This document shows positions 51,355 to 52,750 of a DNA stretch of 64,000 nt, in pieces; positions within the stretch are counted from its first letter, which is position 1, and each line of letters opens with the position of its first letter. A program made the position numbers and the translations under genes. The notes below the pieces were generated by a model that was not told where the DNA came from, made no database searches, and saw only the letters and a list, made by a program, of their open reading frames with translations. This stretch comes from Delphinus delphis (lineage: Eukaryota; Chordata; Mammalia; Artiodactyla; Delphinidae). The stretch is from the NCBI RefSeq assembly GCF_949987515.2, contig NC_082684.1, positions 48,574,006 through 48,638,005 on the forward strand, read 5' to 3'.

Positions 51355-51387
51355 CCTTCTAGATTTTTTTCTTTGATGTACTATCTT

Positions 51388-51435
51388 GTATTAGTTTCTT
51401 TCTTAGAGGGCGTATTAGTTTCTTTCTTAGAGGAT
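51388..51435. repeat. 24-bp tandem repeat, two copies plus partial
   Basis: GTATTAGTTTCTTTCTTAGA with four further bases repeats at 51388-51411 and 51412-51435. A third partial copy is the MLT1 edge itself at 51436. Confidence 0.9.
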
Positions 51436-51718
51436 GTATTAGTTTCCTAGGGCTGCCATGACAAATACACAAACTGGATGGCTTAACAAAAATTTGTTTT
51501 CTCACAATCCTGGAGACTACAAGTCCAAGATCAAGGTGTCAGCAGGGCTGATTTCTTCTGAGGCCCCTCTCCTTGGCCTGTAGATAGCACTCTTCTCCCA
51601 GTGTCTCACATGATTGTTTTCTCTGTGTGTCTCTATGTCCTAATTTTTTCTTTCAAGGACACCAGTCTTATTGAATTAGACCCATCTATATGATCTTATT
51701 TTACCTTAATTACCTTTT
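51436..51718 (-). repeat. MLT1-type MaLR LTR inside the composite unit
   Basis: The reverse complement of the MLT1 3' half: 'gtattagtttcctagggctgccatgacaaatacacaaactggatggctta', 'ctggagactacaagtccaagatcaaggtgtcagcagggctg', 'ggacaccagtcttattgaattagaccca', 'taccttaattacc'. The L1 3' end joins it inside the 'aattacc' region. Confidence 0.85.
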
Positions 51719-51721
51719 AAA

Positions 51722-52628
51722 AAATTTTTTATTGGAGTATAGTTGATTTACAATGTTGTGTTAGTTTCAGGTATACAGCAAAGTGAATCAGCTATACATA
51801 TACATATAACCACTCTTTTTTTTTCTTACATTCTTTTCCCATATGGGCCATCACAGAGTACTGAGTAGAGTTCCCTTTGCTATACAGCAGGTTCTTATTA
51901 GTTATCTATTTTATATACAGTAGTGTGTATATCAGTCCCAGTCTCCCAATTGATCCCTCCCCCATCCATCTCCCGGTAACCATAATTTGTTTTCTACATC
52001 TGTGACTCTACTTCTGTTTTGTAAATAAGTTCAATTGTACCTTTTTTGAGATTCCACATATAAGCGATATCACATGATATTTGTCTTTCTGTGTCTGACT
52101 TACTTTACTCAGTATGACAACTCTAGGTCCATCCATGTTGCTGCAACTGACATTACTTTGTTCTTTTTTATGGCTGAGTAATATTCCATTGTATATATGT
52201 ACCACATCTTCTTTACCCATTCCTCTGTGATAGACATTTAGGTTGCTTCCATGTCCTGGCCATTGTAAATAGTGCTGCACTGAACATTGGGGTGCATGTA
52301 TCTTTTTGAATTATGGTTTTCTCTGGGTATATGCCCAGTAGTGGGATTGCTGGGTCATATGGTAGTTCTATTTTTAGTTTTTTAAGGCACCTCCATACTG
52401 TTCTCCATAGTGGCTGTATCAATTTACATTCCCACCAACATTCCCAGCAAGAGGGTTCCCTTTTCTCCACACCCTCTCCAGCATATATTGTTTGTAGATT
52501 TTTTGATGATGGCCATTCTGACTGGTGTGAGGTGATACCTCATTGTAGTTTTGATTTGCACTTCTCTAATAATTAGTGATGTTGAGCATCTTTTCATGTG
52601 CTTTTTGGCAATCTGTATGTCTTCTTTG
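51722..52628 (-). mobile_element. L1 3' part (ORF2 C-terminus and 3'UTR) in the composite unit
   Basis: Homologous to 27480-28420 and 60720-61680 in this window. The ORF2 C-terminal text is present (CGEKGTLL, CKLIQPLWRTVWRCLKKLKI), but its frame is broken. It is 5'-truncated at 52628, where 'cttctttg' meets the U6 3' end instead of continuing 'gagaaat' as in the other copies. Confidence 0.92.
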
Positions 52629-52735
52629 AAAAATATGGAATGCTTCACGAATTTTCATGTCATCCTTGGGCAGGGGCCATGCTAATCTTCTCTGTATCAT
52701 TCCAGTTTTAGTATATGTGCTGCTGAAGTGAACAC
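52629..52735 (-). pseudogene. RNU6: U6 snRNA pseudogene (full length)
   Basis: U6 is the catalytic-core spliceosomal snRNA. The reverse complement of this segment is U6 from its 5' GTG to the terminal T5: GTGTTCACTTCAGCAGCACA, ATATACTAAAACTGGAATGA, then GAGAAGATTAGCATGGCCCC and TGCCCAAGGATGACATG, ending CATATTTTT. Point changes against the usual sequence (such as the 5' GCTCGCTTCGG region and ACGCAAATTCG) and the L1 fusion show it is a retrocopy. The upstream DSE/PSE/TATA promoter of real U6 genes is not seen. Confidence 0.93.
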
Positions 52736-52750
52736 CTTCTAGATTTTTTT

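What the first reader, a model, noticed from the sequence alone, without database searches (positions are those of the whole stretch)
51355..52750. U6-L1-MLT1 chimeric retrocopy bounded by a single 16-bp target duplication
A full-length U6 snRNA sequence is fused, sense to sense, to a 5'-truncated L1 3' end. The junction is at 52628/52629, where the U6 terminal T5 meets L1 'caaagaag'. On the far side the L1 3' end runs into an MLT1 LTR. CCTTCTAGATTTTTTT appears at 51355-51370 and at 52735-52750, and the second copy abuts the U6 5' end exactly. U6-L1 chimeras from template switching are documented for mammalian L1. A U6-L1 fusion that also carries a 3' transduced flank (an MLT1) would be a three-part product. 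It would show read-through of the L1 polyadenylation site at the donor locus and template switching in one event.
Basis: partly seen in the sequence, partly recalled or inferred. Interest (0 to 1): 0.75.

Follow-up and report, generated by a model that had tools for sequence, protein, structure and literature searches.

The report
Three-part L1 retrocopy, source found
A single jump by a LINE-1 element seems to have pasted a spliceosomal RNA copy, a piece of LINE-1 and a piece of an old retrovirus-like LTR into one spot, and the place the LTR piece was copied from can still be found on another chromosome; a rare-looking combination of two known processes, with no sign of a function.

Summary
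On the minus strand, a full-length U6 copy (52735-52629) is fused to a 5'-truncated L1 3' end (52628-51719), then to the 3' part of an MLT1-like LTR plus 59 nt of flank (51718-51376) and a short A-run. One exact 16-bp target duplication brackets everything. The window's own 2.66-Gb genome is searchable and holds the source of the third part: an LTR on C11 whose flank was found in only two places, C11 and this window. The match stops 11 nt past an AATAAA in the source and 5 nt from the duplication, so the insertion's 3' end looks like a polyadenylated RNA end. The LTR's 5' part is absent here. U6, L1 and LTR divergences agree (about 3-5%), as one event predicts.

Two routes remain: 3' transduction from an L1 allele since lost (favoured, because the joint lies at the source's single TTTAAA, where another MLT1 copy carries an L1), or a double template switch. 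U6-L1 fusions are ordinary here (27 of the 48 best-scoring U6 loci); in none of the 24 with a duplication do more than about 10 nt separate L1 tail and duplication.

The parts
51355..51370 (.). target site duplication, copy at the insertion's 3' end
   Evidence: exact 16-mer, only two exact copies in the window; 5 nt from where the match to the source locus stops
51371..51375 (-). remnant of the A-tail (sense CAAAG, running into the A-run of the duplication)
   Evidence: lies between the end of the match to C11 and the duplication
51376..51434 (-). copied flank downstream of the source LTR, with a 24-bp unit present twice
   Evidence: 135-bp source stretch finds only itself and this place in the genome; repeat family D4
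51387..51392 (-). degenerate poly(A) signal AATACA (AATAAA in the source)
   Evidence: alignment to L010
51435..51714 (-). 3' part of an MLT1-like LTR; its 5' part is absent
   Evidence: 87% to C11:79259377-79259680, other LTR copies at most 81%; LTR 5' part not found in the flank on the U6 side
51715..51718 (-). L1/LTR joint, sense AAAA, assignable to either side
   Evidence: read against L1 copies and LTR copies
51719..52628 (-). 5'-truncated L1 3' end, sense, with its own terminal CAATAAAAAATTTTTT
   Evidence: ORF2p match 5.5e-30 for the stretch 52213-52539; best full-length genomic matches 90% identical; 3' ends of copies compared
52629..52735 (-). full-length U6 snRNA copy, including the terminal T5
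   Evidence: Rfam RF00026, 105.9 bits, 1-105/105
52735..52750 (.). target site duplication, copy at the insertion's 5' end (shares base 52735 with U6)

Best explanation
This is one L1-machinery insertion made of three RNA-derived parts. SHOWN: it is bracketed by a single 16-bp duplication, its 3' third is a copy of the C11 LTR plus flank ending just past an AATAAA, the LTR's 5' part is not here, and the three parts have similar ages. INFERRED: a young L1 had inserted into the C11 LTR at its TTT/AAA site on an allele that was later lost. Its RNA read through the L1 poly(A) site into the LTR and ended at the AATAAA that lies 18 nt past the LTR. U6 RNA was joined to the 5' side of that RNA or of its cDNA (RNA ligation or template jump), and target-primed reverse transcription at a T-rich site fixed the product. 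So: a U6/L1 chimera carrying a 3' transduction whose donor L1 is gone. The single-event core I hold at about 0.95; the confidence below is for the whole chain.
For: Duplication. U6. L1. Source: the one outlier (87%; other LTR matches at most 81%) among the scored candidates (40 of 4260 scored). The 135-bp stretch at its LTR end gives only two genomic places; the match at the window is 46 bp at 93% and ends at window 51376. AATAAA in the source, match ending 11 nt later, similarity lost afterwards. LTR 5' part absent on the U6 side: score 31.3 against a mean of 27.9 and maximum of 39.4 in 200 shuffles, self 160. Ages: 24 differences in 278 LTR columns, 13 on the window branch (4.7%) and 11 on the source branch; L1 end branch 0.044, U6 3 of 93 off CpG. 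For transduction over template jump: the joint is at the only TTTAAA in 409 nt of source LTR plus flank, and in L032 a different L1 sits at that same place of another MLT1 copy, flanked by an exact 14-bp repeat AGGTAGTTAAATTA.
Against: The C11 LTR has no L1 at the joint in this assembly, no sibling insertion carries the same flank, and no second locus with the same L1-LTR joint was found. The looser site TAAAA occurs at four places in the source stretch. The first A-stretch is only AAAA; transductions typically hold two A-stretches (PMC4859970, passage), though some similar L1 copies here also have short ones. The sequence shared by the L1 end and the LTR (TTTAAAA) could also guide a template jump to the same spot. 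The LTR tree split the window/source distance unevenly (0.131 against 0.045). No orthologous empty site could be examined.
Confidence: 0.62

Rival explanations
1. Double template switch: reverse transcription began on a polyadenylated transcript of the C11 LTR locus, jumped at TTTAAAA to the 3' end of an unrelated L1 RNA, and then reached U6. No L1 was ever in the C11 LTR.
For: The C11 LTR is L1-free at the joint. Several L1 copies end in a T-run followed by AAA or AAAA and most LTR copies read TTTAAA at the joint, so short homology exists. Tripartite elements explained by double switches are in print (PMC2104539, abstract and section 8 read).
Against: The joint coincides with the only TTTAAA, an L1 endonuclease-type site, in the source, and another MLT1 copy carries an L1 there. 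It needs two jumps and mobilisation of an LTR transcript in trans.
Confidence: 0.3
2. Two nested insertions: first a retrocopy of the C11 LTR transcript with the 16-bp duplication, later a U6-L1 exactly at its 5' edge.
For: PMC4476161 (passage read) names two successive insertions as an alternative for triple chimeras.
Against: The second insertion would need its own duplication; the sequences before U6 (TCTAGAAGG) and after L1 (AAAAGGTAATT) share only AAGG, and it would have to hit the boundary to the base. The ages agree.
Confidence: 0.05
3. Resident MLT1 with a later U6-L1 insertion, the 16-bp match being coincidence.
For: A second MLT1-like fragment lies nearby at 53107-53160, so such LTRs do occur here.
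Against: The LTR 5' part is missing on the far side; the source flank, the end past AATAAA and the duplication coincide; chance of the exact 16-mer about 1e-5 in 3 kb.
Confidence: 0.01

Closest known systems
U6/L1 chimeric retrocopies (PMC4476161, sections and passages read; PMC13174262, passages and section 10 read; the earlier Buzdin and Garcia-Perez work known only as cited there and by recall)
   Same: full-length U6, sense to a 5'-truncated L1 3' end, target duplication; 27 of the 48 best-scoring U6 loci of this genome begin this way
   Different: here about 340 nt of non-L1 sequence from another chromosome follows the L1 3' end inside the duplication
L1 3' transductions (described in PMC4859970, passages read)
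   Same: non-L1 sequence 3' of the L1, traceable to one source locus, ending after a downstream AATAAA
   Different: the source has no L1 at the required place; the 5' end carries U6
Tripartite chimeric retroelements (PMC2104539: mouse B2-U6-L1, fungal WEIRD-Mg-SINE-MGL)
   Same: three RNA-derived parts in one duplication
   Different: the mouse and fungal ones have the LINE as the 3'-most part; here L1 is in the middle and an LTR-flank transcript end is 3'-most (the make-up of the two human ones was not in the text I read)

Membership tests
U6/L1 chimera | full-length U6 ending in its terminal T-run | tested here: met
   RF00026 1-105/105; T5 at 52629-52633
U6/L1 chimera | sense fusion to a 5'-truncated L1 3' end | tested here: met
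   ORF2p match on the same strand, L1 3' end present as in other copies
U6/L1 chimera | target duplication directly around the chimera | tested here: met
   16 bp, but enclosing the LTR piece as well
U6/L1 chimera | L1 endonuclease-type target (TTTT/A) | tested here: inconclusive
   target is a run of nine T followed by GACA; T-rich, but +1 is G if cut at the end of the run
L1 3' transduction | non-L1 sequence 3' of L1 with a unique genomic source | tested here: met
   two places in 2.66 Gb by that search
L1 3' transduction | ends shortly after a poly(A) signal of the source | tested here: met
   AATAAA, match ends 11 nt later
L1 3' transduction | donor L1 present immediately upstream of the source sequence | tested here: not met
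   C11 LTR reads on without L1 at the joint; the L1 upstream of the LTR is of another type, 80% over the ORF2 part and unaligned over part of the 3' UTR
L1 3' transduction | two A-stretches (after L1 and after the transduced part) | tested here: inconclusive
   AAAA after L1, shared with the LTR; AAAGAAAAAAA running into the duplication; feature as given in PMC4859970
Tripartite chimeric retroelement | three unrelated transcript copies within one duplication | tested here: met
Tripartite chimeric retroelement | empty orthologous site | not testable with these tools
   states that the genome has no relatives here

The most novel reading that the evidence does not exclude
The L1 reverse transcriptase made two jumps in one event: from a polyadenylated C11 LTR transcript onto the very 3' end of an L1 RNA, guided by a TTTAAAA match, and then onto the end of U6. 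This would be a mammalian tripartite element with L1 in the middle. Alternatively, and less likely, the C11 donor L1 existed and was later excised: the source LTR lacks about five bases exactly at the joint that 28 of 28 other copies listed keep in some form and the window largely keeps.
Probability: 0.3. Interest if true: 0.5.

Novelty: new variant of a known kind. Interest (0 to 1): 0.33.

Why it matters
It is a compact, readable case in which both ends of an L1 product came from elsewhere, with the source of one end still present. It separates two questions usually mixed together: whether the L1 3' joint arises from a resident donor or from a template jump, and whether U6 is added to a complete read-through RNA. 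Sampling the C11 locus in relatives would decide the first.

Tried and rejected
Exact-pattern searches for a second L1-LTR joint returned only the window. A looser pattern returned one further place, L112, which on reading shows no convincing L1 or MLT1 at the match, i.e. chance; a control position in the LTR gave none. L002 looked like a relative (85% across the U6-L1 joint), but its joint lies 11 nt further into L1 and its L1 ends early at an A-run, so it is an independent chimera. The LTR tree gave an uneven split (0.131 against 0.045) on a MAFFT alignment; I rely on the direct pair count (13 against 11), and the uneven result stands as a caution. The L1 tree used 18 of the listed genomic copies, not all 41 other matches, and itself scored 40 of 13776 candidates. 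Census: the scripts flagged 19 of 30 and 10 of 18 U6 loci as direct U6-L1; I dropped L064 and L108, whose hits are plain A-runs, leaving 18 and 9. L105 and L106 share one duplication and are probably one event. L048, L065 and L099 gave no duplication. Duplications were found by a script that allows mismatches, so single ones may be wrong (L097 rests on 12 bases with one mismatch). The census covers the 48 scored of 273602 candidates, which are the best-scoring copies, so it is biased to young ones. Pfam found nothing above cut-off in three L1 stretches. The listings of literature (titles and starts of abstracts) showed no U6/L1 with a 3' transduction; this library lacks most subscription papers.

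Full report
WHAT IS THERE. Read on the minus strand, the order is: 16-bp duplication, U6 (52735-52629), L1 3' end (52628-51719), LTR 3' part (51718-51435), copied flank (51434-51376), short A-run, 16-bp duplication. U6 scores 105.9 bits over the whole Rfam model and is the only hit of the window at gathering score. A stretch of the L1 part (52213-52539) matches the end of ORF2p (E 5.5e-30 to solved LINE-1 ORF2 chains). The 16-mer has only two exact copies in the window, and a simple chance model expects 1.4e-5 in 3 kb. One base (52735) belongs to both the duplication and U6.

THE SOURCE. Searching the LTR-plus-joint stretch scored 40 of 4260 candidates. Apart from the window itself, the best was C11:79259377-79259680 at 87%; the other LTR matches reach at most 81% (one 44-bp match of the L1 end alone has 89%). 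In that search the C11 match runs 22 nt beyond the LTR end, the others at most 9. A 135-bp query of its LTR end and flank finds two candidates in the whole genome: itself and the window (46 bp at 93%, plus a second match to the duplicated unit), the match stopping at window 51376. The source reads AATAAA where the window reads AATACA, and similarity stops 11 nt after it, five bases before the duplication. So the boundary deduced from the source and the boundary deduced from the duplication agree without either using the other.

NOT RESIDENT. The LTR's 5' part, 80 nt taken from C11, is not found in 865 nt beyond U6: score 31.3 where 200 shuffles of that flank average 27.9 with a maximum of 39.4 and the perfect score is 160. 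At C11 the LTR reads through from end to end.

AGES. Window and C11 differ at 24 of 278 aligned LTR columns; by comparison with 28 other copies 13 changes fall on the window branch and 11 on C11. The L1 end branch is 0.044 in a tree of 19 rows (the window and 18 fetched copies), where end branches run from 0.044 to 0.080. U6 differs at 9 of 107 bases, 3 of 93 off CpG. The three values (4.7%, 4.4%, 3.2%) are close for such small counts. At recalled mammalian rates this is some tens of millions of years; no clock was run. The LTR tree alone gave a more uneven split, 0.131 on the window branch and 0.045 on C11, noted as a caution.

THE L1/LTR JOINT. L1 copies like this one mostly end in CAATAAAAATT with a T-run of varying length, followed by A-runs that are often short (18 copies; in five of them the CAATAA end is not shown). 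So the window's L1 3' end is complete and its tail is AAAA at most. Most LTR copies read TTTAAA followed by a GAGGTAATTAAG-like stretch at the joint. TTTAAA occurs once in the 409 nt of source LTR plus flank; the looser TAAAA occurs at four places. In L032, another MLT1 copy at C1, a different L1 sits at this same place, with LTR sequence on both sides and an exact 14-bp repeat AGGTAGTTAAATTA at its two ends. Hence the joint looks like a normal L1 insertion into an LTR. But C11 has no L1 there, and the L1 that stands directly upstream of the C11 LTR is of another type (80% over the ORF2 part, with a stretch of 3' UTR that does not align). Two readings remain: a donor L1 allele since lost, which I favour at about two to one, or a template jump at the shared TTTAAAA. 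C11 also lacks about five bases exactly at this spot that the 28 other listed copies keep in some form; three gap runs lie on the C11 row of the pair alignment, so one of them falling near the joint by chance is not remarkable, and I do not build on it.

THE U6/L1 JOINT. U6 ends with its full T5, followed at once by L1 CAAAGAAG. The four other matches to this L1 place in the window read TTTCTC before that point, so no base is shared across the joint. This is what end-to-end joining predicts, by ligation or by a jump to the end of U6. PMC13174262 (outline, passages and section 10 read) gives both routes for U6/L1. The experimental ligation work behind it is known to me from that paper's text and recall only.

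HOW USUAL. Of the 48 U6 loci listed by the RF00026 search, all 48 were examined by script, none of them being the window's: 27 run straight into a sense L1 3' end (18 of 30, 9 of 18, after dropping two A-run artefacts). In 24 of the 27 the script found a duplication, and in none of these are more than about 10 nt inserted between the L1 tail and the duplication (L072 and L097 have about nine). The window is thus ordinary in its U6-L1 half and unusual in its LTR half. PMC4476161 (sections 6 and 9 and passages read) lists U6 copies joined to retrotransposons in every placental genome of its table except one (megabat, 0), dolphin included with 10 of 31. PMC2104539 (abstract and section 8) reports tripartite elements, among them two mouse B2-U6-L1 with 15- and 16-bp duplications. 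The order found here, with a non-L1 transcript end as the 3'-most part, was not in those passages, nor visible in the listings; that is not proof of absence from print.

VERDICT. A real, single, three-part L1-machinery insertion (about 0.95). The 3' transduction reading of its third part is likely but unproven (about 0.6), with a double template switch as the main rival (about 0.3). New variant of known kinds, without evidence of function.

Noticed in passing
L053 (C16:69239819 region) and L044 (C6:5615168 region): U6 copies fused directly to non-L1 sequence that ends in an A-rich run and a duplication. L053's part has one other genomic place at 90%; L044's first 44 nt match another place at 100% and then stop. 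They look like U6/mRNA-3'-end chimeras; L094 and L107 may be similar.
   Followed up: partly
L060 (C1:18469470 region): U6, then about ten bases of L1-like sequence, then the last ~22 bases of U6 again, then L1 onward: as if the U6/L1 joint had been copied twice.
   Followed up: no
L105 and L106 (C6:20236203 and C6:20239833): Two U6-L1 copies 3.6 kb apart in opposite orientation with the same duplication sequence, probably an inverted duplication of one insertion.
   Followed up: no
window 53107-53160: A second MLT1-like fragment lies about 360 bp beyond the insertion on the U6 side; unrelated to the insertion as far as seen.
   Followed up: no
L010, about 1490-1505: The source LTR lacks about five bases exactly at the L1/LTR joint that all 28 other LTR copies listed keep in some form.
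   Followed up: partly
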